This document shows, in pieces, positions 2,479-47,082 of a DNA stretch of 64,000 nucleotides (the stretch's first letter is position 1; every line of letters begins with the position of its first letter). The notes beneath the pieces are model-generated. The model did not search any database and was not told the DNA's origin. It saw only the letters and a list, made by a program, of their open reading frames with translations. Source of the DNA: Gammaproteobacteria bacterium (GTDB lineage Bacteria; Pseudomonadota; Gammaproteobacteria; UBA4575); NCBI GenBank assembly GCA_011523795.1, contig WTFY01000006.1:62001-126000 (forward strand). Reading direction: 5' to 3'. The translations under genes were made by a program, and so were the position numbers.

Positions 2479-3630
2479 CTACTTCCCTTTGAACTCCACG
2501 TAAATGGAGCCGAAATAGCCGAATGCGTCCGAGTATTCAATGCGTGCAGGCGAGTGGGGATCCCCGGGACCGAAGCGCTCTCCCGGTTCTGCATAACGCA
2601 TTTTCGGGACATCCGACAGATACTCCATGCCTGCGCCAACACGAAAGGTCACGTTCCTGGAATACGAGAAAATCAACGAGGTCTGCAGACTGAGAGTAAC
2701 GGCCCATCGGGTATCATTGGTGCGATAGTCCGTGACTTCATCCATCGCAAACGTGCCCGACGATATGAACGTGCGCTGGGCGCCTTGGTAGTCCGCGTCC
2801 AGGTAGTAGACTCCCAGTGTGCTGTCCAGGGCGAGGTTCCAGTCTGGTCGAAGCGGAAGGTTCATCTTGGTGCCGATTGCACCGCCATAGTAGTCGGCGT
2901 CCAGATCTTCGCTGAGCGTGAGATTGTTGATTGTGGCAGGGCGGTTGGATTCATAGGCGAACGTCTTGATGTCCTGGCGCAGTCTCTTGTAGCTGGGTCC
3001 AAGGGAGATCGAGGCGCTGGACCGGGCTGCCGGTTCAGGCTGCTTTCCAGTGACCAGGTCCAGCCCAAAAAAATCCACCTCCCTTTTCGTACGGATACGG
3101 ACGGGATCGCCCCAGGCAAAAATGGCCGAGCCGAACGGCATGGCTCCACCATCGATCCTTCCGATCCAGCCCACCGCCCGAACGTGCGGATCATCATGGA
3201 TCAAATCAAGCAAGTGTCTCTGGGTATGCGGGGTGATGCACTCCCCGATCGCCGCACCCGGCGGACAGTGCCGGTCTTGGAACCGGGTGCGGACCTCCGC
3301 CCATGGAGCGGGATCTTCGCGGTACTCGCGGGTATGCCTGGAAGTATAAGAGGTCCGAAAACCGCGCAGCTCGGTAAACCGGTGGCCATGTGCCTTGCCG
3401 AGGGTAAGGGAAACCCGTGCCCCATCATCCCTGCCATCATAGTGATCCAGAAAACCAAGGGCCTCTTCCCGGCCGTTGGTTCGGATGAACGGGCTGGACT
3501 CCGGCAGGTCCAGCAAGTGAATGCCTGCGCCTGCCTTGATATAAAAATCTTCAGCTGAAGCATCAGGGGAAGCGGCATTCACTTGAAGGCAAAGCAGGAG
3601 GAAGATGAGCAGCAGGAGTGGAATTCTCAT
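2479..3630 (-). CDS. Outer-membrane protein, paralogue of the 10026-11222 product
   Basis: The open frame extends to 3681, but the ATG at 3628-3630 is preferred: it has an AGGAA ribosome binding site and begins directly with a signal peptide (MRIPLLLLIF, cleaved near VNAA). The mature approximately 360 residues look like a large beta-barrel. Long blocks are shared with the gene at 10026, including IRTNGREE, GFLDHYD, VGWIG.IDGGAMPFGS, IRIRTKREVDF, FAYESNR and NNLTL, so the two are recent paralogues. I do not recognise a named family. The repeat block GWIG-IDGGAMPFGS could be a structured loop. Transcription runs away from the repeat copy at 3786. Confidence 0.7.
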   Translation of the reverse strand: MRIPLLLLIFLLLCLQVNAASPDASAEDFYIKAGAGIHLLDLPESSPFIRTNGREEALGFLDHYDGRDDGARVSLTLGKAHGHRFTELRGFRTSYTSRHTREYREDPAPWAEVRTRFQDRHCPPGAAIGECITPHTQRHLLDLIHDDPHVRAVGWIGRIDGGAMPFGSAIFAWGDPVRIRTKREVDFFGLDLVTGKQPEPAARSSASISLGPSYKRLRQDIKTFAYESNRPATINNLTLSEDLDADYYGGAIGTKMNLPLRPDWNLALDSTLGVYYLDADYQGAQRTFISSGTFAMDEVTDYRTNDTRWAVTLSLQTSLIFSYSRNVTFRVGAGMEYLSDVPKMRYAEPGERFGPGDPHSPARIEYSDAFGYFGSIYVEFKGK

Positions 3631-3785
3631 CGAATTCCTGTGTCTCATTGCCGCTGAAACGGTCAAATATCGATCCTGCATATGAGGACTTACAAATAGT
3701 TAGTAACCTTGGCCCGACATACAGACACACTCTGCTCTCGGCTTTTCAAGCTTCATCAGGCACCCCTTGCAATTCCGGTCGATCC

Positions 3786-5601: not shown

Positions 5602-8130
5602 ATGGAAACCGGAACACTTCCCACTTCGAGGTTGAAGATTCTTTTGTTCGGCCTGCTTGTACTGACCGGTGTATTTTCCGGAACGAATACCGCCTCGGCG
5701 CAGATGCATGAAGCTTGTCCACTCTCTCCTGGCCTGGTTCAGCCTGCGGACCCGCGGGTAACTGCCCAACAGGTGGAAAGTGGCAGCGCAAGCCTCATGG
5801 ACTTTGCGCTGGTTGCGAGAGATCATTTCAAGCGTGTATCCCAGGAAAGTTTACAGCAAGCGTACCACTTCGGATGCCTTATCAGGCAGGATGGGGGTCC
5901 TTGGCGTTCCGGTTCCACCTACCTGGTGCAGCTGACGCCTGATGGCAGGGTGTTCGTGCACACCAGGGAAATGGCGTTGTCGGGCAGACTCCTCAATCGC
6001 GCGATTCTTGCAAGAATTCTTACTTCGCTGGGAGTCTCCCAAGCGGATTTGACCAACCCGGCTGCCATCCTGAGAACATTGTCGCAAGAACCGCATGCCT
6101 CGTTCGATGCGACTGCTCCCATACCAGGTATACGGCCGGGCATACCAGGTGCCAAAGGCTATGCCAGTGTCTACAACCGGGCTCGCCAGGCGAGCCCGAT
6201 GATACTGCTGGCGGGGTTTGACCTTACCTCATCCCATCTGGCTCAGGAACCCATCGATTACGGTGACCCGGCCGTTACTGCTGCGAACGTGGTGGATCGC
6301 AGCACCTTGAAGGCCTTCGTCACGGAAGCGGGGAACTACTTTCTCAGACTGCGAGAGACTGGCGGTCGAGAAGCCATTTCAAAAGCCAAGGTTGCCTTGC
6401 GGGATCCGAACGGGCCCTGGAGACACGGCTCCGTGTACGTCTACGTTCTGGATCGTAACAGCAACATCATCCTGTTTCACGGGGCGTTTCCGGACCGGTT
6501 CGAGATTCGTCCCTTGGTGCCGACCGTTCGGGATGTGGTGACCGGGGAGTTCGTGCTGCCCCAAGTGATTGAGGCTGCGACCAGCAGCCCGGAAGGCGGC
6601 TTCGTGGAATACTACTTCGACGATCCCTCAGACGACACTGACAGTGCCGACATTCCCAAGGTGGGCTATGCCCGTGAGTTCCAAATCCGTAGGGCTGATG
6701 GAAGCCTTTCTCCAAATAGTGTTATTGTCGGATCAGGCTTTTACCAGAGTTCACCTGAGGTAGTGGCCGCGCGCCAGAACAAGGCGATCAAAGACGTATT
6801 GCCCCAGGTGATGCGTGCCATGACTGCGAGTACGGTGGATGCCGTCTCGACCCGCATTCAGCAGGCGAACTCCGGCGCACCGCCGGCCAAAGCGTTCAGC
6901 CTCGGCGGCGCCTCCACGCTCTACGATGCCCTGCTGGCAAATGGCCAGGCCCTGGGGACCGGCACCTTCGATCTGGGCCGGCTGTTTGCGAGTTCGTCCT
7001 TCACCCTCCCGCTTGACGGGACGGGTTCTTCAGGTGGCCTGTTCGGGGACCTGTCGATATGGGGCAGTGGAGACTACCGTGACTTCGATGGCGGCGACCG
7101 GCAGCTGGACTACGATGGTGACGTGGTCAGTGCCCACCTCGGGATCGACACTAGGCTGAGGACAGACCTGCTGGCAGGTGTTTCGGTTGCGTGGGCACAA
7201 GGCATGGTCGATTACCGGGACGAGAGCAATGTCACGGGCAAGTCCAAGACCACCCTGACGAGCATCAACCCCTACGTGGGCTGGCAGGCCTCGGAGAGGA
7301 TGAACTTGTGGGCTGCAGCCGGTTATGGCTGGGGCGAAGTGGAGGTGAATGACCAGTCTGCGGAAAAGGAAGACAGTGACATGGACCAGCAAATGGTCGC
7401 GGCAGGAATCAATGGACTGCTGTATGAAGCCGATGCCACGACCCTGAGGCTCAAGGCTGAGGCGGCGTTCACCTGGGCCGACATTGATGGTTCCGGGACC
7501 CTGGAGAGCATGAACTTGAATGCCAGCCGGCAGCGGCTTTTGATCGAAGGAGCCCACGTCCAGAAGCTTGCCTCGGGGGCAACGTTGACTCCCTCGCTGG
7601 AGTTAGGTGTGCGGCATGATGGAGGAGACGGGGATACCGGCAGCAGTATCGAGGCCGGGGGCGGCCTGCGTTATAACGATCCGGAGAGCGGGCTGACGGT
7701 CGAGGGACGAGCCCGGACACTGCTGAACCATAGCGACGATTACGATGAGTGGGGCATGAGTGGGCTGGTGCAACTTGATCCAGGTGCAGCAGGCGTGGGG
7801 CTTGCGCTTATGGTGCAGCCTGCGTGGGGTCATACAGCCAGCGGCGTGCAACGCTTGTGGGACACCGGGGGAGTGGCACTGGCCAACCAGGCAGCGGGAC
7901 GCGTGAATGCACGGCTGGCCTATGGCATTGGCTCAGCATGGGATGGCCAGGGCGTGTTGACTCCGTACACCGACATGCTGCTGTCCGGGGATGGGTCACG
8001 GCGTCTGAGTCTGGGCAGCCGGTTTGACATCGGGACCTCGCTCAGAATCAGCCTGGAAGGGGTGCACGACCAGCCAGTACATGGCAAAAGCCACCACAGT
8101 GTCATGCTGCACGGCGACCTGAACTGGTAG
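5602..8130 (+). CDS. Cache-domain autotransporter
   Basis: The 842-residue protein has a signal peptide (about 1-34, ending TASAQ). Two periplasm/surface-type Cache modules follow: roughly 45-205 (WRSGSTYLVQLTPDGRVFVH, later AGFDL) and 240-390 (WRHGSVYVYVLDRNSNIILF, GGFVEYYF, then VGSGFYQS). Both show the sCache pattern of a tyrosine strand, a D-x-N/G turn and a closing G-F/Y. Residues 400-540 form a linker and the last about 290 are an autotransporter beta-barrel with repeated GYGWGEVEV-type strands, ending in HGDLNW. Cache domains normally bind small metabolites in chemoreceptors and kinases; here the sensor is fused to a type V secretion barrel and should be displayed outside the cell. No ligand can be named. 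Confidence 0.8.
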   Translation: METGTLPTSRLKILLFGLLVLTGVFSGTNTASAQMHEACPLSPGLVQPADPRVTAQQVESGSASLMDFALVARDHFKRVSQESLQQAYHFGCLIRQDGGPWRSGSTYLVQLTPDGRVFVHTREMALSGRLLNRAILARILTSLGVSQADLTNPAAILRTLSQEPHASFDATAPIPGIRPGIPGAKGYASVYNRARQASPMILLAGFDLTSSHLAQEPIDYGDPAVTAANVVDRSTLKAFVTEAGNYFLRLRETGGREAISKAKVALRDPNGPWRHGSVYVYVLDRNSNIILFHGAFPDRFEIRPLVPTVRDVVTGEFVLPQVIEAATSSPEGGFVEYYFDDPSDDTDSADIPKVGYAREFQIRRADGSLSPNSVIVGSGFYQSSPEVVAARQNKAIKDVLPQVMRAMTASTVDAVSTRIQQANSGAPPAKAFSLGGASTLYDALLANGQALGTGTFDLGRLFASSSFTLPLDGTGSSGGLFGDLSIWGSGDYRDFDGGDRQLDYDGDVVSAHLGIDTRLRTDLLAGVSVAWAQGMVDYRDESNVTGKSKTTLTSINPYVGWQASERMNLWAAAGYGWGEVEVNDQSAEKEDSDMDQQMVAAGINGLLYEADATTLRLKAEAAFTWADIDGSGTLESMNLNASRQRLLIEGAHVQKLASGATLTPSLELGVRHDGGDGDTGSSIEAGGGLRYNDPESGLTVEGRARTLLNHSDDYDEWGMSGLVQLDPGAAGVGLALMVQPAWGHTASGVQRLWDTGGVALANQAAGRVNARLAYGIGSAWDGQGVLTPYTDMLLSGDGSRRLSLGSRFDIGTSLRISLEGVHDQPVHGKSHHSVMLHGDLNW

Positions 8131-10025: not shown

Positions 10026-11222
10026 GTGTTCCTTGAAAGAGTATTCCCAGGGTGGTGGAAAGTCATCCTGATGGCTTTCCCAGTTTTTCTCCTGCTGTGC
10101 CTTCAGGCTGATGCGGCCGCACCGGACACCTCAGCCGGAAAAATGTATGCCAGGGTTGGCGGGGGAGTATTTTTTCTGGACCTGTCCGAGACAAGCCCGT
10201 TTATCAGAACAAACGGCCGGGAGGAAGTCGTCGGGTTTCTTGACCACTACGATGCGGAGTTTGAGGATGGAGCACTGGTCACCTTCGCTGCCGGCAGGGA
10301 ATATGACCCGTTTGGAAATATCCCGCTAATCGAGTTAAGCGGGTTTTTCACTTCCTACACGTCCAGGCAGGTCAGCGATTACAGCGAGGATCCTGACCCA
10401 TGGACCGACGTACGCAGCGAGTTTCTGGAGCAGTACTGTCCGGGAGGGATAGAGGGTGAAATGTGCCTTACCGCAGAGACTGAACAGTATCTCGTTGCAT
10501 TGATAAAAAACGATCCGCAGGTCAGGTCAGTCGGCTGGATCGGTAAGATAGACGGCGGTGCCATGCCTTTCGGCTCTCCCAATTTTGCGTGGGGGGATCC
10601 CATCCGGATCCGTACGAAAAGAGAGGTTGACTTCTATGGTCTTGACCTTGTCACCAGTACGTTTGCCAGGCAGACAGACCGGGCTCAGACCCTGTTCTTT
10701 ATCGGGCCAAGCTTCAAGCGGCTGGACCAGGAAACCGGGACATTTGCCTACGAGTCCAACCGGCTCCCGTCCGTTAACAACCTGACGCTGGAGGAGGATT
10801 TGGAAGCCTCGTATTACGGCGCAGTCATCGGCACCAGGACGGACGTTCCGTTCAGGAAGCGCTGGAATATCATGGTTGACGGAAGACTGGGAGTCTACTA
10901 TCTCGATGCCGAATATCATGGGTCACAGAGGACCCTGTTGTCATCAGCCTCTCCCGTACTGGACGTGTCCACTGATCTGAAAACGAGTGATTCGGAATTT
11001 GCAGCAACCCTAAGCCTCCAGGCTTCCCTGAGCATTACTACCCGTGACAGGGTGACATTTCGTATCGGGACCGGTGTCGAGTATCTTTCGCATGCTCCGA
11101 AAATACGCTATGCGACGGTCGGGGAAAGTTTTGCAAGCGGTGACCCCCACACTCCCGCCCGAATAAGGTATTCGGACGCCTTCGGTGTGTTCGGCACAGT
11201 GTCTGCAGAGATCAGAATGTAG
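10026..11222 (+). CDS. Outer-membrane protein, paralogue of the 2479-3630 product
   Basis: The 398-residue frame opens at a GTG; an ATG at 10071 (MAFPVFLLLC) is a plausible alternative. Either way a signal peptide ends near LQADAAA. The mature sequence aligns almost end to end with the product at 2479-3630 (shared IRTNGREE, GFLDHYD, DGGAMPFGS, RIRTKREVDF, FAYESNR) with an insertion of about eight residues around REYDPFGNIPL. The function is unknown; a beta-barrel is likely from the alternating pattern and the aromatic-rich C-terminal third. The paralogues point in opposite directions about 6.4 kb apart, so the block between them may have moved or inverted. Confidence 0.7.
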   Translation: MFLERVFPGWWKVILMAFPVFLLLCLQADAAAPDTSAGKMYARVGGGVFFLDLSETSPFIRTNGREEVVGFLDHYDAEFEDGALVTFAAGREYDPFGNIPLIELSGFFTSYTSRQVSDYSEDPDPWTDVRSEFLEQYCPGGIEGEMCLTAETEQYLVALIKNDPQVRSVGWIGKIDGGAMPFGSPNFAWGDPIRIRTKREVDFYGLDLVTSTFARQTDRAQTLFFIGPSFKRLDQETGTFAYESNRLPSVNNLTLEEDLEASYYGAVIGTRTDVPFRKRWNIMVDGRLGVYYLDAEYHGSQRTLLSSASPVLDVSTDLKTSDSEFAATLSLQASLSITTRDRVTFRIGTGVEYLSHAPKIRYATVGESFASGDPHTPARIRYSDAFGVFGTVSAEIRM

Positions 11223-29601: not shown

Positions 29602-29678
29602 TGCGGGGTGGAGCAGTCTGGCAGCTCGTCGGGCTCATAACCCGAAGGTCGCAGGTTCAAATCCTGCCCCCGCTACCA
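29602..29678 (+). tRNA. Initiator tRNA-Met (CAT)
   Basis: A 77-nt cloverleaf with anticodon CAT at 29636-29638. It has the initiator hallmarks: three consecutive G-C pairs in the anticodon stem (GGG...CCC), an A11-T24 D-stem pair and an unpaired first acceptor position. The T arm is GCAGG TTCAAAT CCTGC and the encoded 3' end is ACCA. Position 1 is T and position 72 is T, where the usual bacterial initiator has C1 and A72; the mismatch is kept but with other bases. The 3' part is the integration site of the following element. Confidence 0.92.
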
Positions 29679-29768
29679 TTTGGACTGTCCGAGAAGCTCC
29701 CAGGAAGTCCAGTAAAGTCCGGTAAACGTATTAAAAACAGTTAGTTAAAATAATAAAACGTATCATTG
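29655..29768 (+). repeat. Left attachment-site repeat (attL) of the integrative element
   Basis: Begins in the T arm of the tRNA gene (GTTCAAATCCTGCCCCC) and continues through ATTTGGACTGTCCGAGAAGC and TCCCAGGAAGTCC, an exactly matched block also found at 48260-48310. Beyond that, similarity with the right copy goes on, with substitutions, to ACGTATCATTG and more weakly to about 29793. Confidence 0.85.
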
Positions 29769-29800
29769 CTTCCAACAAGGTCCATTGACATCCTAGAAAA

Positions 29801-29823
29801 TTGACAGTATATTTGACAGTATA
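29801..29823 (+). promoter_or_regulatory. Paired TTGACAGTATA motifs (candidate integrase arm sites, left)
   Basis: TTGACAGTATA occurs twice with a 12-nt period, between the left repeat and the integrase start. The same arrangement with one-base changes occurs at 48185-48207 just inside the right end. Matching pairs at both ends fit arm-type binding sites of the tyrosine integrase or sites for its excisionase. Confidence 0.55.
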
Positions 29824-29854
29824 TTCTGGTTCAAATTAAAAAGTACTGTCATAA

Positions 29855-31090
29855 ATGCCCCTCACCAATTCCCGCCTCAAGGCAGCAAAGCCACGTTCCA
29901 GCGATTACCGAATAGCCGATAATGGCGGTCTTTTCTTGCTCGTCAAGGCGAATGGCAGCAAATACTGGCGTCTGGACTATCGTTTTCGCGGTAAGCGTAA
30001 CACCTTGGCATTGGGTGTTTACCCTCTGGTGAGTCTCAAGGATGCTAGGGAAAAGCGCAGGCACGCCAAGATTCATCTTGAGGCCGATCGGGACCCCAGC
30101 GAGGTCCGCAAGGAAGAAAAGCGAGCCAAGCAGGTGGATCGCTTTGAAGATGTAGCCCGTCAGTGGTGGGAGCATTACAAAGAAGTCTGGACTCCGAAGC
30201 ATGCAGCCAATGTATTCAGACGGCTGGAAGCCAATGCTTTCCAAGATCTGGGACATTTGTCCATTGATGAAATTACACCCCAGAGGGTCATTGTCATGCT
30301 TCGCAAGATTGAGGCACGGGATGCACTCGATGTGGCTAGTCGGGTCAAACAGGCGGTGCATGCTGTCTGCCGTTTTGCAATCCAGCAAGGCATAGCTACC
30401 CACAATCCGGCCAGTGACCTGGATGGCATTGTCCGGCAGCGCAAGGTCCGGCATCGTCCTTCACTGCCCAGGGAAGAACTGCCACAGTTCCTGCAGCTCC
30501 TTGAGACCTACAGCGATCGTGGCCGACTGTTGACTCAGCGTGCAATCAAGCTACTACTGCTGACCTTTGTACGCTCCGGCGAGCTGCGGGGCGCACGCTG
30601 GGAGGAGTTTGATTTCGAGGACAAAGTCTGGCGCATCTCCGCAGGCCGCATGAAGATGGGCAATGAACACCTGGTGCCCCTGTCCCGACAGGCCCTGGAA
30701 GTGCTTGAGCTGTTGCAGAGCATGACCGGCAACTACGAGCTAGTGTTTCCCTCCGAACGGGACCGCAGCCGCGAGATGTCGGACAACACGATGCGCCGGG
30801 CAATCTTCAAGCTAGGGTATGACGGGACCGTGGATGGCAAGAGCAAGGCAGTGCCGCACGGGTTCCGTGCTACCGCTTCCTCGATCCTGAACGAGTCCGG
30901 CTTCAACCCGGATGCCATCGAGCGTCAACTGGCCCACAAAGAAAGAAACAGCGTACGGGCGGCCTATACCTACCATGCCCGCTACCTAGACGAACGAAGG
31001 ACCATGATGCAGTGGTGGGCCGATTACCTAGACGAGATGCGGGCATCGGGCAAGGTGATTCCATTGTTCTCCAGGGCAGCCAACGGCTAA
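29855..31090 (+). CDS. P4-type tyrosine integrase
   Basis: 411 residues with the DUF4102 N-terminus of P4-like integrases (MPLTNSRLKAAKPRSSDYRI, GGLFLLVKANGSKYWRLDYR, LALGVYPLVSLKDAR), a SAM-like core-binding domain and the catalytic domain. Catalytic residues are visible in VRSGELRGARW (Arg), HGFRATASSIL (His-x2-Arg) and RAAYTYHARYLDERR (Tyr). It starts 177 nt after the tRNA and transcribes into the element, the usual layout for tRNA-targeting islands; it should catalyse integration and excision between the repeats at 29655 and 48260. Confidence 0.95.
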   Translation: MPLTNSRLKAAKPRSSDYRIADNGGLFLLVKANGSKYWRLDYRFRGKRNTLALGVYPLVSLKDAREKRRHAKIHLEADRDPSEVRKEEKRAKQVDRFEDVARQWWEHYKEVWTPKHAANVFRRLEANAFQDLGHLSIDEITPQRVIVMLRKIEARDALDVASRVKQAVHAVCRFAIQQGIATHNPASDLDGIVRQRKVRHRPSLPREELPQFLQLLETYSDRGRLLTQRAIKLLLLTFVRSGELRGARWEEFDFEDKVWRISAGRMKMGNEHLVPLSRQALEVLELLQSMTGNYELVFPSERDRSREMSDNTMRRAIFKLGYDGTVDGKSKAVPHGFRATASSILNESGFNPDAIERQLAHKERNSVRAAYTYHARYLDERRTMMQWWADYLDEMRASGKVIPLFSRAANG

Positions 31091-31110
31091 GCAGTCGGAT
31101 TCTATCTGCA

Positions 31111-31298
31111 TCACCCCTGCTGCCGGGATTCGATCCACTGGACCACCGCCTGCTCATGCTAGCCAACCGAGCAGACCCTGGTGTACTGGATCTATTTTGG
31201 GAAGTTGCCCTTGGCAATCAGGGCGTAAATCGTGGAGCAGGAATATCCGATCATGCGCTGGACTTCCTTGAGCCTTACAATCCTGTGATTTACAGATA
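31111..31298 (-). pseudogene. Decayed alpA-like excisionase/HTH gene
   Basis: Minus-strand translation gives HRIVRLKEVQRMIGYSCSTI, YALIAKGNFPK, stop, IQYTRVCSVG, stop, HEQAVVQWIESRQQG. It matches the intact AlpA at 34274-34495 nearly residue by residue (YRIVRLKEVQRMTGLSRSTI; WHEQAVIQWIESRKQ). Two in-frame stops and loss of the start codon show that it is dead. It lies antisense just behind the integrase gene. Confidence 0.85.
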
Positions 31299-31352
31299 AG
31301 CTCTTTTTGTGCTGTAAGGTCTACCTACGCAAGACACAAAGGAGGAAATTCG

Positions 31353-31400
31353 ATGGAAAACCGAACTAGTTTCCGTCATGGTTTTTTGTTGGTTTCCTGA
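31353..31400 (+). other. 15-codon open frame with a very strong ribosome binding site
   Basis: AAAGGAGG at 31338-31345 is followed at ideal spacing by ATG and a frame reading MENRTSFRHGFLLVS. It could be a leader peptide for the protease gene behind it or the remnant of a truncated gene. Nothing beyond the start signal supports it. Confidence 0.25.
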
Positions 31401-31433
31401 CTGATTCTCAATGAGTACTATTCGAGTATTGGT

Positions 31434-32519
31434 TTGCGAAGGGTCCATGAAATTTTTCGCCATGCTACCATGGCTCATGGTGCAACAAACAAAATAGAGT
31501 CAATGGCAGGGAAGCATGAGAGGTATGTCCAGCTGGAGCGCATGGATGTCCAGATGGAAACAACCATTGCTGCAGCTGCAGCGCATTTCTTTTCCCCTTT
31601 GGCCATCGGCCAACATAATCGTCGAGAAGAAGGATCTAAAGGAGCTCTGACCCCTGCAAAGAGTGCGGATTTCATGGACTTTCTGAAAGAAAGGGGAGCA
31701 CTTCCAGATCCATATAAGTATATCTACCAGATTCGGGACCTGCTTTCGCGGATGGAGCAGGCCAACATCCTGGTTTCATTTCCGTCGTACACGAATAACG
31801 TAATGCTCCCCAAGAGCTACTACGCTTTGCACGAAACGTCGGTACAGAGGGCACAGGGATTTCTCTGGCTGGCGAAAGCACTAGGCGGGAGGTTTGTGTA
31901 TGAACAAGTGTCTACGGCAGTTGTCCACATCGTAGGAGAGGACAATACTAGCGAAGGTAGTGGCATCGTGTTTGATCCTCACCACATAATCACTTGTCGC
32001 CATGTAGTAACGGATATGACGGTGGCGAGGAAGCAAGTTTTCCAACATAAGACAGTGAGTGTCGAAAAGATTATCAAACACCCAGACATCGATGTCGCTG
32101 TCATCAAAACAAGAGAACAGTTGTCTCCAACTCCGGGCTTAGTTTTTCTGCGTCCAGAGGTGTCGCAGAAAGTGTATCGGTTTGGGCACGCTCGTGTCCC
32201 GTGTTCCGTCCCAATGAGCAATAGGGAGCCGACTATCGAAAGCGGCGAGATCACTCGCATGTCGATGATCGTGTTTGGTGGCTCCGAGCTATTTCTGTAT
32301 TCTGCGGTGTCAAGACCAGGGGATAGCGGCGGTGCGATAGTCTCGGAGGATGGCTACATAGTAGGTATGACGACTGAATTGTCCGATGCCCGCTACAAGG
32401 GCCGTGATGGTGAGGATGTTTTCTCGCCTCACTATGCGGGCATTCCTTCCGATGTGATTGCAAAAGCTGTCGAGGACTTGGACTTGGGCATACTCATACC
32501 GTACGAAATGTTTGAGTAG
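31434..32519 (+). CDS. Trypsin-like (S1/HtrA-fold) serine protease, cytoplasmic
   Basis: The C-terminal about 220 residues form a chymotrypsin-fold protease with a full triad: H190 (IITCRHVV), D220 (HPDIDVAVIK) and S298 (RPGDSGGAIVS). No signal peptide or PDZ domain is present. The first about 150 residues are helical and not recognised. The start is unsure: a TTG opens the frame, with ATGs at 31470 and 31503, none with a good ribosome site. Solitary intracellular trypsin-like proteases are known as effectors in some phage-defence systems and this one sits in a defence-like element; that role is inferred. Confidence 0.8.
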   Translation: MRRVHEIFRHATMAHGATNKIESMAGKHERYVQLERMDVQMETTIAAAAAHFFSPLAIGQHNRREEGSKGALTPAKSADFMDFLKERGALPDPYKYIYQIRDLLSRMEQANILVSFPSYTNNVMLPKSYYALHETSVQRAQGFLWLAKALGGRFVYEQVSTAVVHIVGEDNTSEGSGIVFDPHHIITCRHVVTDMTVARKQVFQHKTVSVEKIIKHPDIDVAVIKTREQLSPTPGLVFLRPEVSQKVYRFGHARVPCSVPMSNREPTIESGEITRMSMIVFGGSELFLYSAVSRPGDSGGAIVSEDGYIVGMTTELSDARYKGRDGEDVFSPHYAGIPSDVIAKAVEDLDLGILIPYEMFE

Positions 32520-32660
32520 GCTGGTTTGACCATCACTCACCACTTCCGGTTCGAGACAACTGCACTAGGAAGCGAGAACCGTGGAGTCCTTCTTTGTTCC
32601 GAATCTGTTTGCACCCGACCTCCACGAGCGGATGATATCCATGCAGGATGACAGCCGTGT

Positions 32661-32707
32661 TCCGGCCGCGTCACTACAAAGTGAAACGCGGTAGTGACGC
32701 GGCCGGA
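32661..32707. repeat. Perfect 17-bp inverted repeat
   Basis: TCCGGCCGCGTCACTAC and GTAGTGACGCGGCCGGA are exact reverse complements around a 13-nt centre. It lies 142 nt after the protease stop in a gene-free stretch. No T-run follows on either side, so it may be a recombination or binding site, or a structured RNA element. Confidence 0.75.
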
Positions 32708-32811
32708 TATCGGTCCCAAATGCAGGTAGTCCCGTACTGTACAATTTTGGGGTGCGAATGCCCCACAGATTACGGCGTCGGAATCTTAGCTGTGTGATAA
32801 GAAGATTTTCC

Positions 32812-32839
32812 GTGACAGAGAGGCGCCAAATGGTATACT
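32812..32839 (+). promoter_or_regulatory. Sigma-70-type promoter
   Basis: GTGACA (-35, one base from consensus), a 16-nt spacer and TATACT (-10, one base from consensus). It is one of the better promoter matches noticed in the element and points into a 565-nt region without a gene ahead of the second recombinase. Confidence 0.5.
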
Positions 32840-33404
32840 GACTCGTAACAGTTTTGTACCGGCGCCGCTACGGTATATCAGCGGCAATTGAGGCACCTCC
32901 GGACTGCGAAAAGGTGCCCCGGCTGAAAGGCTGCAGTCCATATTCAACTTCAGCCTGTATCTCTGTTACAGGGAGCAGGCATGCGGAACCAGGCTCTTTT
33001 GGGGCCGGTCTCCGTTTCAACTCAAGGCCTTGTTGCCTGCAGGCACCTGCGGGGTCCTCCCTGTGCGTGTCATCCATTTAATGCCCTGTACAGGACGTAC
33101 CGCCCTGGCCCTTTTGGGTCCAGCAGGTGCTGTGCTGCGCGAAGGGCCGTGTATTTCAATTCCGTGGACTGGGTTCCACACAATTTAAAAGGAGGGTATT
33201 CCCATATTCGAAAATCGCCTCGCAAGGGCCACGTTGACTGTCGCAGGAGTGGTATTCCACAGAAATCCTTCTGCGAGGCCTCAACTGAGGCACAACCAAG
33301 TCATTGAGGGAGTCGTGTCCCATGAGCGTACTCGCGTAAGCGAATCCTGAACCGCCCAGGCGGCCAGCAGCTCAGAAACACTCACCGAAAGGAAAGAACA
33401 CGTA
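32840..33404 (+). ncRNA. Structured non-coding leader or RNA candidate
   Basis: No gene-like frame on either strand. Several short stems follow each other: GCCGCT/AGCGGC near 32870, GGCACCT/AGGTGCC around 32890-32920, and GGACTGC/GCAGTCC around 32900-32940, which competes with the previous one. It may be an untranslated leader of the second recombinase or an independent RNA. No known RNA family recognised. Confidence 0.35.
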
Positions 33405-34271
33405 ATGAGAGACTTGAACTACAACTTGAAACAGCTCTGCAGGAACTGCAGAGAGGGCAGCTATGCCACCCAGCAGAACCGGGAACGGATATTGACTCAG
33501 GCCGCTGATGAGCTTCACCAGATGGGCTATCGCAGGATGCAGGCCAGGTCACTGAAGCCTAAGCACATCGAGGCCCTGGTGAAGCTGTGGCGGGAGAAGG
33601 ACCTGTCCATCGGAACCATAAAAAACAGGATGGCCGCACTGCGATGGTGGGCTACCAAGGTCAACAAGCTGAACGTCATCGCTAAGTCGAATGAGTTCTA
33701 TGGCATTCCGGACCGAAGGTTCGTAACCAACCAGAGTAAGGCTAAGGAACTCACCGAACCCCAGCTCAGTAAGGTCAGGGACGAACACGTCCGCATGAGC
33801 CTCGAGCTGCAGCGGGCCTTTGGTCTCAGGAGAGAAGAAGCCATGAAGTTTACTCCCAGCTATGCAGACCAGGGCGATCATATCCAACTGAAAGCGAGCT
33901 GGACGAAAGGTGGCAGGCCACGAGCCATTCCCGTTCGAACAGAACACCAGAGAGACGTCCTGAACCAGGCTCGGCGCTTGGTCGGCTTCGGCTCCCTGAT
34001 CCCGCCCCATCGAAATTACGCGCAGCACCTCAGGGTCTACGAAGGCCATACCACAAGGGCAGGCCTGTCCAGCCTGCACGGGCTGCGCCATGCCTATGCC
34101 CAGGAACGCTACGAGGAACTGACCGGCTGGAAGTGTCCGGCCACCGGAGGCCCCGGAAGAGAAGCCCTGAGCCCGGAACAGAGAGAACTGGACCACGAGG
34201 CCCGGCTGACCATCAGCCAGGAGTTGGGCCATGAGAGATCACAAATAACGACAGCCTACGTAGGAAGATAA
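33405..34271 (+). CDS. Second tyrosine recombinase (integrase-domain protein)
   Basis: 288 residues with AAGGAAAG before the ATG. The N-terminal half is a SAM-like DNA-binding domain (KPKHIEALVKLWREKDLSIG, TIKNRMAALRWW). The C-terminal half carries tyrosine-recombinase residues: Arg in FGLRREEAMKF, Lys in SWTKGGRPR, HGLRHAYAQ, then ELGHERSQITTAYVGR with the presumed nucleophilic Tyr four residues from the end. It is unlike the P4 integrase at 29855 and resembles recombinases found inside integrative and plasmid elements. It runs straight into alpA. Confidence 0.8.
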   Translation: MRDLNYNLKQLCRNCREGSYATQQNRERILTQAADELHQMGYRRMQARSLKPKHIEALVKLWREKDLSIGTIKNRMAALRWWATKVNKLNVIAKSNEFYGIPDRRFVTNQSKAKELTEPQLSKVRDEHVRMSLELQRAFGLRREEAMKFTPSYADQGDHIQLKASWTKGGRPRAIPVRTEHQRDVLNQARRLVGFGSLIPPHRNYAQHLRVYEGHTTRAGLSSLHGLRHAYAQERYEELTGWKCPATGGPGREALSPEQRELDHEARLTISQELGHERSQITTAYVGR

Positions 34272-34273
34272 CC

Positions 34274-34495
34274 ATGAAGATTGAAACGGGAAAAAGTATG
34301 AGGAATCTACCCATAAACTACAGGATTGTAAGATTGAAGGAGGTCCAGCGCATGACCGGACTTTCCCGCTCTACCATCTATGCCCAGATTGCAAGGGGCA
34401 ATTTCCCGAAGCAGATCAGGTTGACCGGTGCCCGTTCGGTGGGCTGGCATGAACAGGCAGTGATCCAGTGGATCGAGTCTAGGAAGCAGGCATGA
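34274..34495 (+). CDS. alpA: AlpA-family HTH regulator/excisionase
   Basis: 73 residues, 2 nt behind the recombinase, with GGAAGA before the ATG. The MerR-like HTH is plain: RIVRLKEVQRMTGLSRSTIY, then AQIARGNFPKQIRL and GWHEQAVIQWIESR. AlpA proteins activate integrase expression or help excision of P4-type elements. A dead homologue lies at 31111-31298. Confidence 0.9.
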   Translation: MKIETGKSMRNLPINYRIVRLKEVQRMTGLSRSTIYAQIARGNFPKQIRLTGARSVGWHEQAVIQWIESRKQA

Positions 34496-34516
34496 TATTC
34501 AGGATTAGAAGATTAT

Positions 34517-34894
34517 ATGCATTTCAATGTCAGGTCCCCATACAGCTATTTTTCCTACACAGCGGCGTTGTCTGCCTTCAAGATAAAGCTAAGAACTAGT
34601 TTTTCCGGCGCTGTCCCAATGTGGGAATTTATGCGGTTGTTCGGATTAAACTTTGTTGTCCCAGCCTTTGATCGGGAAGCGAATCATCCCATCTACGTCG
34701 GCGAACTTCCTATAGGTTGGGAGATACCAACCGTACACGGCCTGCCGACCTTCACCAATTTTTATCTCAGCGGTGTCCTGCGTCATTCTTTCTGCTTCAT
34801 CTTGGGCAGGCAGAAAACCCAAAGAGCGTTCGGTGACTTATCTACCATGTACGTACTACTAACTCCTCTGTCTGAATACGGTGTACAGCGTTAG
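34517..34894 (+). CDS. Uncertain hypothetical protein, 125 residues
   Basis: No family recognised and no clear ribosome binding site. The 3' end overlaps the convergent methylase gene by 53 nt. Composition is ordinary for a protein (aromatic-rich, MWEFMRLFGLNFVVPAF), so it may be a real or truncated gene, but the evidence is weak. Confidence 0.3.
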   Translation: MHFNVRSPYSYFSYTAALSAFKIKLRTSFSGAVPMWEFMRLFGLNFVVPAFDREANHPIYVGELPIGWEIPTVHGLPTFTNFYLSGVLRHSFCFILGRQKTQRAFGDLSTMYVLLTPLSEYGVQR

Positions 34895-35681
34895 CAGCCA
34901 GAACACTAGAACGGTTTACTACATCAAGCCTCCCAATTCCACTGTATATTTCCCTAACTGAAATGTGGTTGGCATTGGTTACAAGGACTTGAGCACCACG
35001 ACTAGAAGCCCTTTCTACTGCATCACGTAACCGTATCTGATCTGTCCATGAAAAGATTTTATCATTGTATTTGAGGAATCCGTTGAGGTTATGATTGACC
35101 GTGTAGGGCGGGTCCACAAAAACAAAATCCTCTGGGCCTGCAGCCTCCATCGATTCTTCGAAGTCTCGACAGATAATTTCTGCATTTAACAAAAGTCTAC
35201 CAATTTTGGCAAAATTATCAGTTGACAGAACTACACTATTTTTTGAACCAATTGGTACGTTAAATTCATTGCTCTTATTAACTCGGTAAAGCCCGTTCCA
35301 GCAAGTGCGGTTTAGGTAAATTAACCACACTGCCCTCCCTATTGAGTCCGTTGGTTTTGAAGATCTGGTGTGATAGAAGTAATCCTTGCTATGTGCGTTA
35401 TGGTGCTTAAGGAGCTTTTTAGTAATGGATTCTGGATCTTCACATATCGCTTGAAAGCAATCGATCAAATCGGAGTTTATATCCGAAAGAATAGCCTTTT
35501 TTGGCTGAAGTGCAAAAAACATAGCTCCACTACCTAGAAATGGTTCGATATATCGCTTATAGCGAGTTGGAACCATATCGAGGTAACGCGAGGTGAACCA
35601 ACGTTTGCCACCGGCCCATTTTAGAAATGGAACAACCTGATCACCAGCTGAGAAGTTAGATAAAGTACCACCAGAGTTCAT
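34842..35681 (-). CDS. D12-class (Dam-like) DNA adenine-N6 methyltransferase
   Basis: 279 residues from the ATG at 35681, which overlaps the upstream gene stop as ATGA. Family motifs in order: FLKWAGGKRW (SAM region), EPFLGSGAMFF (motif I), YLNRTCWNGLYR, and the catalytic DPPY in FVFVDPPYTVNH. It should transfer a methyl group from SAM to adenine in a short recognition site, perhaps GATC-like as in Dam, but specificity cannot be read. It is the last gene of a three-gene operon with the unknown protein and the DGQHR protein. Confidence 0.92.
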   Translation of the reverse strand: MNSGGTLSNFSAGDQVVPFLKWAGGKRWFTSRYLDMVPTRYKRYIEPFLGSGAMFFALQPKKAILSDINSDLIDCFQAICEDPESITKKLLKHHNAHSKDYFYHTRSSKPTDSIGRAVWLIYLNRTCWNGLYRVNKSNEFNVPIGSKNSVVLSTDNFAKIGRLLLNAEIICRDFEESMEAAGPEDFVFVDPPYTVNHNLNGFLKYNDKIFSWTDQIRLRDAVERASSRGAQVLVTNANHISVREIYSGIGRLDVVNRSSVLAANAVHRIQTEELVVRTW

Positions 35682-37027
35682 GATGGGCACAGACTCCAAA
35701 TCGCAACGCGCTCATGGCTCGCCAATACACTTAGTTCGCGTGCCAATTCTAAGGCTATGCCACTGAAAGAATCAAACAATTCCGGGTCTCGACTTTCGAC
35801 TTGAGCAAGCTCGACGAGGCTATCTTGGACGTCTGTCCACAAGTCATGCAACTCGGACGGAGGATGTCCAGGTGGCCAAATGCCACAGCTTTCACCGAGT
35901 TGCTTCCACCAGAATGCTAAATGATCGGCATTTATGTCAGCATTTTCGAGTAGACGGTGGGCTGTACCAGTCGCTAGTCGAAGTAAAAGCAGGGCACGTG
36001 AAACTACAGCTAGGGAATCTTCCCAGATATTACTAGGTACCCTGGATGAGTATTTGAAAACTAAGGGATCAGCAGGAGAAATTTGCCTACATAAGAATCT
36101 CTTGATGCGTCTTTTCGCTGAGGGTTGTAAACTCAATCCAGTTAAGAACCTGTCGATCAATTTCTCAAACTTAGAGTCACCACTGCTAGCTTGTTTGCCA
36201 GTGGATCCAAAATAAAATTGCTCGATAGAGAGCCGAAGGATATGTCGGTCTATCTGCTCAAAGCTTGATGTTGTGCTTGGTTCGAGCAATCCCCACATGT
36301 CACGGACAAATTCTAAGCAAGCCGCAGCATTTGCTTCCCAGGTAACAGGTACACCATCAGGACGGTAGCTAGATTCGTTACGAGCATCTCGATCCTTAGT
36401 GACTAGCCTAAGATCCATTCCCCATTGCATAAACCACTCTTTTGCGTGGGGAGCCACTGCAATAGCACCACCCTGCGATTGAAACCATTGATTGAGACTG
36501 TAACTGTCAGGTCGAATAAGTTCGGCAAAGGCATCACGGGACTCTGCCATTTGAGCCCATTCCTCTAAGGCGAGCCATGCCATAAGGTGAGTCCCTTGAC
36601 CCGAACATAACTTTGTTGCCGAATTGGCCTGTTGGACAATGAAGTGTTGATTGTTGAATATTCCAATTCCAAAGCCTGCTAAGAGTGACATAGCAGCTCG
36701 TAACTCGGCATAGTAGGCGAGGTGCAGGGCACGATGTGTGTCACCGGTCAAAATACATCCTACAGCTCGGCCAAGGTAACTCCAGCCGTCTTTAGCATGA
36801 AGTGTCACACTTGCAGCGATGTATTGCGCTAGATTGCGTTTGTGTTGTGGCGTTGCTGGAGTGGCTCTCTCTAACCGAGAGATTGTATCTTTGGCGTAGT
36901 AGTTATTTTTACCGACCCAAGATGATTTACCAAGGAATATCTTTAACCCAGCTACTGTTGATTCAATTTCTGCTTGCCTTACATTACTAATTGCAGTCTT
37001 AGCGCTTTGAGACAACGCTGCCGTCAT
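35678..37027 (-). CDS. Unknown protein between DGQHR and methylase genes
   Basis: 449 residues, soluble, mostly helical by composition, with no motif I can name. Notable blocks are AYYAELRAAMSLLAGFGIGI, WLALEEWAQMAESRDAF, DRHILRLSIEQFYFG and TGTAHRLLENADINADHLAF. Start and stop both overlap the neighbouring genes by 4 nt (ATGA), so it is translationally coupled in an operon with them and probably works with the methylase. The codon use is AT-richer than the nuo region, as for the whole block. Confidence 0.8.
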   Translation of the reverse strand: MTAALSQSAKTAISNVRQAEIESTVAGLKIFLGKSSWVGKNNYYAKDTISRLERATPATPQHKRNLAQYIAASVTLHAKDGWSYLGRAVGCILTGDTHRALHLAYYAELRAAMSLLAGFGIGIFNNQHFIVQQANSATKLCSGQGTHLMAWLALEEWAQMAESRDAFAELIRPDSYSLNQWFQSQGGAIAVAPHAKEWFMQWGMDLRLVTKDRDARNESSYRPDGVPVTWEANAAACLEFVRDMWGLLEPSTTSSFEQIDRHILRLSIEQFYFGSTGKQASSGDSKFEKLIDRFLTGLSLQPSAKRRIKRFLCRQISPADPLVFKYSSRVPSNIWEDSLAVVSRALLLLRLATGTAHRLLENADINADHLAFWWKQLGESCGIWPPGHPPSELHDLWTDVQDSLVELAQVESRDPELFDSFSGIALELARELSVLASHERVAIWSLCPS

Positions 37028-38568
37028 GTCTGCCCCAATAACCGTTTTGCGACACCCGCAATTTCTCCTTTCTCCTTGGTAAGATGCTCAAGCAACTGAA
37101 TACGAATCTCCTTATATCCGCCACTTCCGCGGAACACCAGTTTAGCTCTCCGAAGTTCTTCTTCTAGTCCTGGTGCAGAACTAGACCGCCAATCAAACGA
37201 CACAAGGCGTTCACAAACTTGGGTAACAAAACTTGAGAATTTCTGCTCCTGTAATGACTTAAGTGAACTTTCCACTGTACTCTCAAGATCTGAACTTAAC
37301 CTGTCATCCGGTCGCCAATCACCCAAGTTCAATTTACCCGCTCGAAAGTAAAAAATGTCGTTCAGCACATGTAAAAAACCCCGAACGCCCTGATCAGTTG
37401 TAATAAGTGAATGCGGGCCATAAAACGCGAAATCCTTGCGCGGATCTAAGCCTTTGCTTTTCCGCGACTGGGACGCAGTTTGTTTGGCAATTTCCCGTAA
37501 ATCCTCCGCCCACTCGGACTCCGTTGCTGAGATTGCAGCCCGAAACTGGCGCCACGCGAAAATAAGAAATGCTGCTTGTTGCGCTCGGCTCCAGCCAAGA
37601 ACTTCTCCTTCCTGACGAGAACGACCTCCAAACAATCCTCCACTCCTCTTTGAGTGCCTACTATCCCAAGAACGGACAAATGTCGCTGACAAGGACTTAA
37701 TCCAAGCACTTTGAGTCACCCACCTATTATTGCGCTCCCCAAGCATATTTATCCTGTCATACCAGGGGCTCTTTGGAAATGACCACAACACCTCGGTCAA
37801 CTCTTGGGCTCGCGTTTCTCGATATACGATGTGACTCTCCTCCTGCTCAAGCCAATTTTCGCTCCTGAGAAGCGGATAGAGATCAAATGCCAAGCTGGGG
37901 TTGATGCGTTTAGGTTTTATGTTGATCGTCCAAAACAAATAAGCCTGCCAGCTTATGTCTAGCCCGACAAAGGCTACAACTGGGAGTTCGAAGTCTTTTA
38001 ACTTCGTAGCACTGTCAAATGCCCAAAGACGATGTTGCCCATCGATAACTTCGAAAGGTGGCAACTGTTTCGGTGACCAGTCAGAACTCCAGGTATCGTA
38101 GGGAAGTCGAAGTTGTGTAGTCCCATTAACGTCTACCAGTGACACTAGGTCCGAATTGGCCACGGTGCTTCCATAACGCTCGTCACCTTTAGTTAAGATA
38201 TTGAGTACAATTGCTGTTGGAAGCCAACCAGGTTTTCGAAGATTGTTAAAGTTTGTGCTTGCCCGCTTGGTCTCGCTCAGCGTTGACCAAGGAAAACCAT
38301 ACTCGACAAATCGGCTGATTTCTTCCGATCGCTTCGAATCGTGCTGTCGCTGAATACCAAGATCCTTTGTCCTCGGTGTTGCATCCTTGGCGACTCGTCT
38401 AGCAATACCTGAAAGGCTTCTAAGCTCTCGAGCAGAAAGTGAAAATAAGTAGAAATGTTTTTCTGGCTTGGAGCGGTATTCATCTGAATCGAAATCAATT
38501 TTATTCCAACCCGGTAACCACTGACGGACTTTCAATACGGGTACTAGGCTGTGTTGTCTTGTGCTCAT
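37024..38568 (-). CDS. DGQHR-domain protein (DndB/ParB-like fold)
   Basis: 514 residues. The signature VIDGQHRLWAF sits at about 174-183, preceded by RSEEISRFVEYG and GWLPTAIVLNI, and followed by FWTINIKPKRINPSLAFDLY, the arrangement of DGQHR proteins related to DndB and other DNA-modification-linked families with a ParB/sulfiredoxin-like core. About 300 more residues, rich in Arg and Trp, have no recognised domain. It is the first gene of the operon; two ATTCTAGGAT repeats lie 27 and 62 nt before its ATG. A role in DNA modification or restriction is inferred from the family and from the adjoining methylase. Confidence 0.8.
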   Translation of the reverse strand: MSTRQHSLVPVLKVRQWLPGWNKIDFDSDEYRSKPEKHFYLFSLSARELRSLSGIARRVAKDATPRTKDLGIQRQHDSKRSEEISRFVEYGFPWSTLSETKRASTNFNNLRKPGWLPTAIVLNILTKGDERYGSTVANSDLVSLVDVNGTTQLRLPYDTWSSDWSPKQLPPFEVIDGQHRLWAFDSATKLKDFELPVVAFVGLDISWQAYLFWTINIKPKRINPSLAFDLYPLLRSENWLEQEESHIVYRETRAQELTEVLWSFPKSPWYDRINMLGERNNRWVTQSAWIKSLSATFVRSWDSRHSKRSGGLFGGRSRQEGEVLGWSRAQQAAFLIFAWRQFRAAISATESEWAEDLREIAKQTASQSRKSKGLDPRKDFAFYGPHSLITTDQGVRGFLHVLNDIFYFRAGKLNLGDWRPDDRLSSDLESTVESSLKSLQEQKFSSFVTQVCERLVSFDWRSSSAPGLEEELRRAKLVFRGSGGYKEIRIQLLEHLTKEKGEIAGVAKRLLGQT

Positions 38569-39031
38569 TATGCTGTTACTTCCAGCTTCCCAGAATTCTA
38601 GGATGTATTTAGCCCGGACTATTCATTCCATTCTAGGATTAGGGTTTGCAGGCATGCATTAATTGTTTGTTATGGCTAAGAAGTTTATTGCTGAACCGGA
38701 ATCGATGTGAAAAAGAAACCGTACACCCACCATGCCCGACGATACCTGTCTTTCCTCTAATCTTCCAGTCGTACAATGCAAAAAAATGCATGCCGCTTTA
38801 GCCTGATGACCTAATTTCGCTACAGAATTTTGCCAAGCAAAAAGTTGGCAGGATAGTACGATTGGATAGAATGTCTATTACATTCAGCCCAGTTGACTGC
38901 ACACCCTTCTTCTTTACTTGCTGTACTAAGAGTCAGTTTAAATGTTTGCTAATTTTTAGTTGTCAGATATTTGCGAATCTAGTGGATCATACTACCTTCA
39001 ATATCACCCGACAAAAATCTAGATCACGTGA
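38569..39031. other. AT-rich gap between two defence operons
   Basis: 463 nt without a gene. It should hold the promoter of the DGQHR operon (right to left) and the terminator of the restriction operon (also right to left). Apart from the direct repeat at 38595-38639, no clear terminator hairpin was found. Confidence 0.5.
38595..38639. repeat. Two direct ATTCTAGGAT repeats
   Basis: Exact 10-nt copies at 38595-38604 and 38630-38639, 35 nt apart start to start, just before the DGQHR gene. They may be operator sites for the operon. Confidence 0.4.
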
Positions 39032-41857: not shown

Positions 41858-42480
41858 GCTTCTTCAGGATTATTTTCCAAAGTGTAATCCCCCAGGTACA
41901 TCGCATAGGTCTCAGGTTCTTGTTCAAACAGTGCCTTGCTGTACATCACCTTTCCGTCCAAAGGGTACAAACCATCCAGATAGTTATTGAATGCTTCGTT
42001 CTTGTCATACCTGATCTCATCCTCTGTGAGAGCATCCAGTTTTCGCAGCATGTATGTACACAGGCTGTCGGTCATGCCAATCACCATCTCTGACAAGTCC
42101 GCATCGTTGACCTGTTCCTTGAATGAAGCCCTGCCGTGACTAATATCACCATGCTGGTTTCTCAGCTCCGCAAGATAGTGAACGATTGAACCCAGCCGAT
42201 TGGTCAAGTCCGCATCAAAGAATCTGTCTCTATCCTCCAGTGCAGAAAGGGCTTGCTTGAACAAACTTTGACAATCCCGGTATTCATCCAGAACATGGAG
42301 CGGCTCCTGCTTCAGCGAAGCAATGACTAGCTTGGAGATTCCTTCAATGACAGATTTACACGTTTCAATCGTGATATCAGGCTTCTCATCAACGTGCCCC
42401 TCAATGACATCAAGCAGGCTGTTGTAGTATTCAAGCCTGTATTTTTGAATCCTTTTGATTTCCCTCCTTACTCTTTCCAT
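41854..42480 (-). CDS. Abi_C-like (abortive-infection family) protein inside the hsd operon
   Basis: 208 residues, helical. The block ITIETCKSVIEGISKLVIAS followed by LAELRNQHGDISHGRASF resembles the abortive-infection C-terminal (Abi_C/HEPN-like) domain, where an RN...HG.xHG pattern is conserved. The N-terminal 30 residues are a basic helix (MERVRREIKRIQKYRLEYYN). It lies 12 nt behind hsdS and overlaps hsdR, so it is made together with the restriction enzyme. A backup abortive response or a regulator of restriction are both possible. Confidence 0.6.
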   Translation of the reverse strand: MERVRREIKRIQKYRLEYYNSLLDVIEGHVDEKPDITIETCKSVIEGISKLVIASLKQEPLHVLDEYRDCQSLFKQALSALEDRDRFFDADLTNRLGSIVHYLAELRNQHGDISHGRASFKEQVNDADLSEMVIGMTDSLCTYMLRKLDALTEDEIRYDKNEAFNNYLDGLYPLDGKVMYSKALFEQEPETYAMYLGDYTLENNPEEA

Positions 42481-42492
42481 GTGTGATTGAAA

Positions 42493-43647: not shown

Positions 43648-43663
43648 AAATTACTCTTTATTA

Positions 43664-45226: not shown

Positions 45227-45537
45227 TTTGCAGGCTCTAACATATATACATGGCAGATTGTGCCTTAATCTCAGAATAATGAAGTTGTCCCGAAATTTCG
45301 TCTTTTGCTACTTGTTGCTATAAACTTTGAAATCGTACCATTATTTTCATAACACAACCTTTGTTTACAGGTGATACTGTCCGATCAGAAGAAGGGATCA
45401 ATAGTGCAATTTTTCGTCACTTCCGCCTTCCGCTTCCGAGTGTGAATGTGAGCGTGTAGAGTATCTGTTCATGCTCTATGAAAAGGTGCTCGCATCATTA
45501 CTAAAGGCCAGAAAAAGCAAAGAACGCGGTAAAATAG
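45227..45537. other. Divergent intergenic region hsdM / HEPN gene
   Basis: 311 nt, AT-rich, with promoters expected for both directions. I see no repeat, hairpin or tRNA here. Confidence 0.4.
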
Positions 45538-46902: not shown

Positions 46903-47082
46903 GGAGAATGATTTTATGTGGGGAATCCCAGGAGAGTAGCCTCAGGTAGTGATTAAGAAAAAATCGCTTCCCTGGCTTTTCCTTCATTCCGGATTGGCTT
47001 ACTTGGTATTGGGGTTCTTATTTCAGATTGCAGGGACTGCCATCATAAATTTTAAGATTTTGGAGTAACTAAGACACACTAC

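What the first reader, a model, noticed from the sequence alone, without database searches (positions are those of the whole stretch)
5602..8130. Cache sensor domains fused to an autotransporter barrel
Cache domains bind amino acids, amines or organic acids in membrane receptors. Here two such modules are followed by a type V secretion barrel with no signalling domain, so ligand binding would take place on the cell surface or in a released passenger. I know of no standard family with this order.
Basis: partly seen in the sequence, partly recalled or inferred. Interest (0 to 1): 0.62.

Follow-up and report, generated by a model that had tools for sequence, protein, structure and literature searches.

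The report
Surface-displayed carboxylate-binding Cache pair, sponge symbionts
A bacterium, probably a sponge symbiont, makes a protein that seems to hold a small-acid-binding sensor domain on the outside of the cell with no signalling part attached, and bacteria of several other phyla carry the same sensor pair with a different export tag, which suggests a shared outside-the-cell job in the symbiosis.

Summary
ORF 5602-8130 (842 aa) has an N-terminal signal-like segment, two Cache modules and a C-terminal autotransporter-type barrel; no signalling domain was found. Module 2 is confidently modelled (passenger pLDDT 90.5) and matches single-Cache domains that bind C2/C3 carboxylates (Z 12.7-13.3). 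The four residues that hold the carboxylate in PscD (Tyr, His, Tyr, Lys) map to Y279, H293, Y337 and K353 and are identical in 47 of 47 aligned family members. Module 1 is a diverged Cache with half the pocket. The barrel and pore helix match EspP, NalP and Hbp (Z about 20), although the model has 18 strands, not 12. New here: the Cache pair is a cassette. In Proteobacterial MAGs it carries this barrel. In a Latescibacterota-type phylum it carries a type IX secretion tail, and five of five such genomes tested encode SprA, against none of five without such tails. Most carriers look like sponge-symbiont MAGs. The window's genome has no other dCache_2 match and no MCP signalling domain. Best reading: an extracellular small-carboxylate-binding, non-signalling module, tethered to the surface; its task (recognition or adhesion, or scavenging) is inferred. 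No paper joining Cache and autotransporter or type IX secretion was found in the searches made.

The parts
5602..8130 (+). whole gene: Cache-Cache-helix-barrel protein, 842 aa
   Evidence: relatives over the full length L002-L013
5602..5703 (+). N-terminal signal-peptide-like segment, residues 1-34 (basic start, hydrophobic core, ASAQ), read by eye
   Evidence: sequence; similar hydrophobic N-terminus in relatives; no signal-peptide program was available
5749..6231 (+). Cache module 1, residues 50-210; keeps Y107 and H120, lacks the Lys; C92 of the conserved pair C39/C92
6271..6753 (+). Cache module 2, residues 224-384, sCache_2 type with full carboxylate tetrad
6436..6438 (+). Y279, equivalent of PscD Tyr90
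   Evidence: PMC5062169 passages
6478..6480 (+). H293, equivalent of PscD His103
6610..6612 (+). Y337, equivalent of PscD Tyr143
6658..6660 (+). K353, equivalent of PscD Lys156
6754..6870 (+). long helix 385-423 after module 2, modelled as the helix that enters the barrel
   Evidence: VIA-align spans 385-727 on EspP 8bnz
7051..8127 (+). outer-membrane barrel, residues 484-842, 18 strands in the model, ends in W842

Best explanation
It is an exported, surface-tethered ligand-binding protein. Steps and their standing: (1) a signal peptide sends it through the inner membrane (read by eye); (2) the C-terminal barrel enters the outer membrane and the chain passes to the outside, the helix 385-423 staying in the pore (inferred from family, model and matches to EspP/NalP/Hbp); (3) the two Cache modules stand on the surface (inferred, supported by T9SS-tailed homologues in other phyla); (4) module 2 binds a C2/C3 carboxylate such as acetate, propionate, pyruvate or lactate in a Tyr-His-Tyr-Lys pocket, while module 1 is structural or a weaker site (predicted from conserved residues); (5) binding is not turned into a cytoplasmic signal, since no signalling domain was found in the protein and no MCP domain in the genome (shown by search). 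I think it acts outside the cell as a metabolite-dependent recognition or adhesion surface toward host or neighbours (inferred, weakest step).
For: Fold: passenger pLDDT 90.5, pTM 0.87; module 2 to carboxylate sCache domains Z 12.7-13.3 at 20-24% identity. Pocket: profile aligns to 4k08 (E 6e-16) and 5g4y (E 5e-12) with the tetrad in register; tetrad identical in 47 of 47 rows; PscD residues from PMC5062169 passages. Selection: module 2 is the most conserved part among 16 barrel forms, mean pairwise identity 73.5% against 58.6% (module 1), 64.9% (linker), 60.7% (barrel). Its dN/dS is lowest in 4 of 4 close pairs (0 to 0.19); in the distant window-L002 pair the linker is lower (0.137 against 0.161). 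Display: PF03797 over cut-off; EspP Z 20.1, NalP 19.7, Hbp 19.6. Outside location: 25 of 63 related ORFs carry a T9SS tail, 18 a barrel; SprA in 5 of 5 T9SS-tail genomes, 0 of 5 others. No MCP domain and no other dCache_2 match in the genome.
Against: No ligand, localisation or expression was measured. The 47 rows are 52% or more identical to the window, and module 2 has 38 invariant columns of 162, so an invariant tetrad is expected in part from relatedness. The barrel model is weaker (whole pLDDT 78, pTM 0.64; the last ~110 residues partly under 60) and has 18 strands rather than 12. The five SprA-positive genomes are one phylum, hence one historical event. The adhesion or recognition role has no direct support.
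Confidence: 0.6

Rival explanations
1. Carboxylate scavenger: the Cache pair captures short-chain acids in the sponge matrix and concentrates them at the surface for uptake.
For: Pocket of the C2/C3 carboxylate type; many copies in some genomes, up to 13 matches, fit an abundant binding layer.
Against: No conserved transporter neighbour: of nine neighbour genes tested only outer-membrane-type genes recur, and only in the same genus. The pair occurs with unrelated tails, so no fixed partner is implied. PscD affinities are 23-356 micromolar, poor for scavenging.
Confidence: 0.2
2. Gated channel: the 18-stranded barrel is a porin-like channel and the Cache pair sits in the periplasm, binding acids that enter.
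For: The model has 18 strands and the barrel also matches OprD-type channels, OpdO 2y0k Z 12.6 and OccK10 4fso Z 12.4, a group recalled to be 18-stranded and to carry carboxylates and basic amino acids.
Against: Best matches are autotransporters with the helix included, Z 17-20; PF03797 over cut-off; homologues of the Cache pair carry T9SS tails that lead outside; related barrels carry long Calx-beta/Ig-like repeats (read by eye), typical surface passengers.
Confidence: 0.12
3. Ordinary adhesin passenger: the Cache fold has lost ligand binding and serves as a scaffold.
For: Module 1 has lost the Lys position (S in 41 of 47); conserved acidic loop 340-350 could be a metal site; other passengers on this barrel are adhesin-like repeats.
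Against: Module 2 keeps all four ligand residues in 47 of 47 rows and is under the strongest constraint in the close pairs.
Confidence: 0.2

Closest known systems
sCache_2 chemoreceptor domains: PscD (5g4y), Adeh_3718 (4k08), V. parahaemolyticus MCP (2qhk/4exo)
   Same: Fold, order of elements and the Tyr-His-Tyr-Lys carboxylate tetrad of PscD
   Different: Those sit in the periplasm of membrane receptors with a signalling domain; here two tandem modules, no signalling domain found, outer-membrane barrel; the Trp sandwich is Tyr281/Phe339
Type Va autotransporters (EspP, NalP, Hbp)
   Same: PF03797 barrel, pore helix, C-terminal aromatic residue
   Different: Passenger is a Cache pair, not a beta-helix; barrel about 360 residues with 18 modelled strands instead of 12
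T9SS cargo proteins with type A sorting domain (TIGR04183)
   Same: Close homologues of the Cache pair in other phyla carry this tail
   Different: The window protein has a barrel instead; its genome has no SprA match
Cache-domain enrichment in sponge Thaumarchaeota (PMC7848895, section 20 read)
   Same: Cache domains proposed as surface recognition proteins of sponge symbionts
   Different: Archaeal; families and tails not described in the section read; homology to this family not tested

Membership tests
Cache superfamily, sCache_2 type (module 2) | Cache fold | tested here: met
   Z 12.7-13.3 over 132-136 residues to four sCache entries
Cache superfamily, sCache_2 type (module 2) | Pfam curated score | tested here: inconclusive
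   dCache_2 24.5 bits against 26.5, 26.9 with neighbours in the frame; sCache_2 12.5 against 25
Cache superfamily, sCache_2 type (module 2) | Carboxylate-liganding Tyr90/His103/Tyr143/Lys156 | tested here: met
   Y279/H293/Y337/K353 in 47 of 47 rows
Cache superfamily (module 1) | Cache fold | tested here: inconclusive
   hhalign to module 2 E 5.3e-7 over 70 columns, confident model; the fold search did not cover this part
Type Va autotransporter | PF03797 barrel over cut-off | tested here: met
   49.5 bits against 26
Type Va autotransporter | 12-stranded barrel | tested here: inconclusive
   18 strands modelled, last part of low confidence
Type Va autotransporter | helix in the pore joining passenger and barrel | tested here: met
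   helix 385-423; alignment to EspP 8bnz, NalP and Hbp begins at 382-391; model only
Type Va autotransporter | Sec signal peptide | not tested
   read by eye
Type Va autotransporter | passenger outside the cell | not testable with these tools
   needs labelling or proteolysis
Chemoreceptor or other membrane sensor | signalling domain in the protein | tested here: not met
   none in Pfam or NCBIfam scans; no MCPsignal in the genome

The most novel reading that the evidence does not exclude
A payload shared across phyla: an extracellular carboxylate-binding Cache pair has spread by gene transfer among sponge symbionts and has been refitted with each lineage's own export route (type V-like barrel in Proteobacteria, type IX tail in Latescibacterota-type bacteria, other tails elsewhere), because reading or holding small acids outside the cell is a common requirement of life in the sponge.
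Probability: 0.4. Interest if true: 0.82.

Novelty: new variant of a known kind. Interest (0 to 1): 0.63.

Why it matters
Cache domains are known as the input half of membrane receptors. Here one is used without any receptor, apparently on the outer surface, with its ligand-pocket module as the most conserved part. The same payload with a different export tail in each lineage points to a shared function in sponge symbiosis, a field rich in repeat-protein candidates but poor in testable ones. The ligand class is specific enough for a simple binding test.

Tried and rejected
Chemoreceptor reading rejected: no MCP domain in the genome (the control rang in 7 of 14 well-known genomes). Mobile-element reading: no match to the passenger in plasmid and phage records and none confirmed in viral contigs. 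Sequence search of solved structures with the whole-passenger profile gave only two chance-level matches, E 0.95-0.97; the mixed module-2 profile was needed. Foldseek on the passenger gave low TM-scores, 0.15-0.22 of the query, spread over PAS and Cache proteins; VIA-align resolved module 2 only. Of nine neighbour genes compared with the fetched loci, only the two related 400-aa outer-membrane-type genes and one small barrel recur, and only within the genus. Single origin of the barrel forms: the Cache tree holds the 13 Proteobacterial-barrel rows apart, p-AU 0.037, but the group was named after the tree was seen and the bootstrap had not settled, so tail exchange is likely, not proven. NCBI phylum labels mix 'Gemmatimonadota' and 'Latescibacterota' MAGs that one search places in one phylum, so counts of phylum changes overstate transfer. 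Cross-phylum near-copies from one metagenome (L012 and L027, both SB0662) may be binning errors.

Rows dropped: A1 holds the window plus 46 of the 55 ORFs. Left out: L001 (same gene), L004, L006, L011, L014 (two pieces of a broken frame), L016, L028 and one fragment of L029. Two of the 13 'Proteobacterial-barrel' rows, L027 and L031, are cut by the contig end and were counted as barrel forms because their ends match this protein's linker by eye. Family members were found by six exact peptide patterns, so distant or non-sponge relatives may be missed.

Full report
What is there. The ORF at 5602-8130 is intact. Pfam finds an autotransporter barrel well over its cut-off and a Cache domain just under its cut-off in one protein; NCBIfam finds only a chance match. 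An AlphaFold2 model of residues 35-400 from a 47-row alignment is confident (pLDDT 90.5, pTM 0.87). It shows two modules of the same order, each with its own leading helix, so they look like tandem single-Cache modules rather than one double Cache. Module 2 matches single-Cache chemoreceptor domains 2qhk, 4k08, 4exo and 5g4y at Z 12.7-13.3. Module 1 matches module 2 by profile (E 5.3e-7) but was not covered by the fold search.

The pocket. In the paper on PscD (PMC5062169, abstract and passages seen), Tyr90, His103, Tyr143 and Lys156 hold propionate, with Trp92 and Trp145 above and below; the domain binds glycolate, acetate, propionate and pyruvate. A profile of module 2 with diverged relatives aligns to 5g4y and 4k08 and puts Y279, H293, Y337 and K353 in those places. 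All four are identical in 47 of 47 rows; the sandwich places are Y281 (45 of 47) and F339 (46 of 47). Module 1 keeps Y107 (45 of 47) and H120 (47 of 47) but not the Lys (Ser in 41 of 47). Cysteines 39 and 92 occur together in 43 of 47 rows, 3 of the rest lacking the first place to a gap. Module 2 is the best conserved part of the barrel forms (mean identity 73.5% over 120 pairs, barrel 60.7%) and has the lowest dN/dS in four of four close pairs (0 to 0.19). In the fifth, distant pair (window and L002, where dS is about 1.2 and near saturation) the linker is slightly lower, 0.137 against 0.161. A passenger module more conserved than its barrel argues for a function in the pocket.

The barrel. 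The full-length model (pLDDT 78.2, pTM 0.64) has a helix at 385-423 and 18 strands from 484 to 840. VIA-align puts EspP (8bnz, Z 20.1), NalP (1uyn, 19.7) and Hbp (3aeh, 19.6) on top, the helix included. Eighteen strands would be odd for a type Va autotransporter; the last third of the barrel is less sure. Related barrels in the class (matches in 8 of 274 genomes at E 1e-8, the window's own included) carry long repeat passengers that I read as Calx-beta or Ig-like by eye, and in one further gammaproteobacterial genome (L055, barrel 58% identical) the Cache pair again. So this barrel is a general chassis. The window's genome has two other PF03797 proteins, with different passengers.

The cassette. 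A scan of 84,980 species genomes gave 44 distinct loci. Of 63 related ORFs in them and in the window's own gene, 18 have a barrel, 25 a T9SS sorting tail, 16 another end (several of these are broken frames) and 4 are cut by the contig end. NCBIfam confirms the T9SS tail (TIGR04183) in 4 of 10 proteins tested, all four from genomes labelled Gemmatimonadota or Latescibacterota. SprA, the T9SS channel, is found in 5 of 5 genomes whose homologues bear that tail and in 0 of 5 with barrel or other tails, the window's own included. The five are one phylum (G165 taken as the genome of L023 and L044 from equal ORF lengths), so this is a match of tail to machinery, not five independent events. In that phylum 24 of 64 genomes have a match, some of them only weak ones over module 2, with up to 13 matches in one genome. 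Around the window the gene is in 3 of 5 genomes of the genus and in none of the other 89 of the 94 genomes searched. In the Cache tree the window and L002 group with L044, a T9SS-tailed gene (support 100/97). One clade for the 13 Proteobacterial-barrel rows is rejected only weakly (p-AU 0.037).

Sponge link. Of the 44 loci, 22 come from MAGs named RHO, COS, IRC or APA. These fit the host sponges of PMC8163846 (Rhopaloeides, Coscinoderma, Ircinia, Aplysina; passages seen); that paper does not spell out the prefixes in what I saw, so this is inference. Ten more are SB06xx bins, recalled as Ircinia ramosa. The other 12 (seven jk18x/p16x, two Plut, EF100, rhlh7, OX638377) I could not assign. PMC7848895 (section 20 read) reports Cache domains enriched in sponge Thaumarchaeota and proposes surface recognition; I did not test kinship with those.

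How it works. The genome has no MCP domain and no second dCache_2 match, so the Cache pair is not part of a chemotaxis receptor there. The common factor among the forms is export to the outside. I therefore read it as a surface-held carboxylate-binding module facing host or neighbours; recognition or adhesion is my choice, scavenging the main rival.

Is it in print? Searches for Cache domain + autotransporter (1 paper; the passages seen concern a periplasmic receptor and an unrelated secretion system), dCache + autotransporter (4 papers, listing seen only; one is the same paper), Cache domain + type IX secretion (0) and sponge + Cache domain + symbiont (3) showed no description. In the Cache superfamily paper (PMC4822843) the words 'secreted', 'stand-alone' and 'adhesin' do not occur in the text held. 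Subscription papers and preprints outside PMC were not searched.

Noticed in passing
window 2479-3681 (-) and 10026-11222 (+): Two outer-membrane-type proteins of about 400 aa with no Pfam match flank the gene; both match the same homologue upstream of the Cache-barrel gene in two other genomes of the genus, L002 2774-4015 and L014 4517-5821. A direct comparison of the two window copies printed nothing; their kinship is seen through the shared hits.
   Followed up: partly
window 29602-47952: Island-like block next to tRNA-Met (29602-29678): tyrosine-recombinase-like ORFs (29855, 33405, by eye), adenine-methylase-type gene, a DpdB-like gene and a type I restriction-modification set.
   Followed up: partly
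L036 3995-5068, 5290-6528, 6532-7194, 8426-9703: Four short secreted Cache proteins end in the same motif WGQLKSxF, possibly another sorting signal.
   Followed up: no
L030 5578-11334 and L032 5830-10194: Gemmatimonadetes-labelled proteins with two to three Cache pairs in a row, repeats and a more distant barrel (31-32% identical to this one).
   Followed up: partly
L018, L021, L023, L025, L026, L029: Tandem arrays of two to five Cache-pair ORFs with T9SS tails in one phylum.
   Followed up: partly
L014 5923-8567: The gene is split into two overlapping frames in this genus member: a frameshift in the MAG or a broken gene.
   Followed up: no
window residues 340-350 (6619-6651): Acidic loop DDPSDDTDSAD in module 2 with D340, D344 and D347 identical in 47 of 47 rows, perhaps a metal site.
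   Followed up: no
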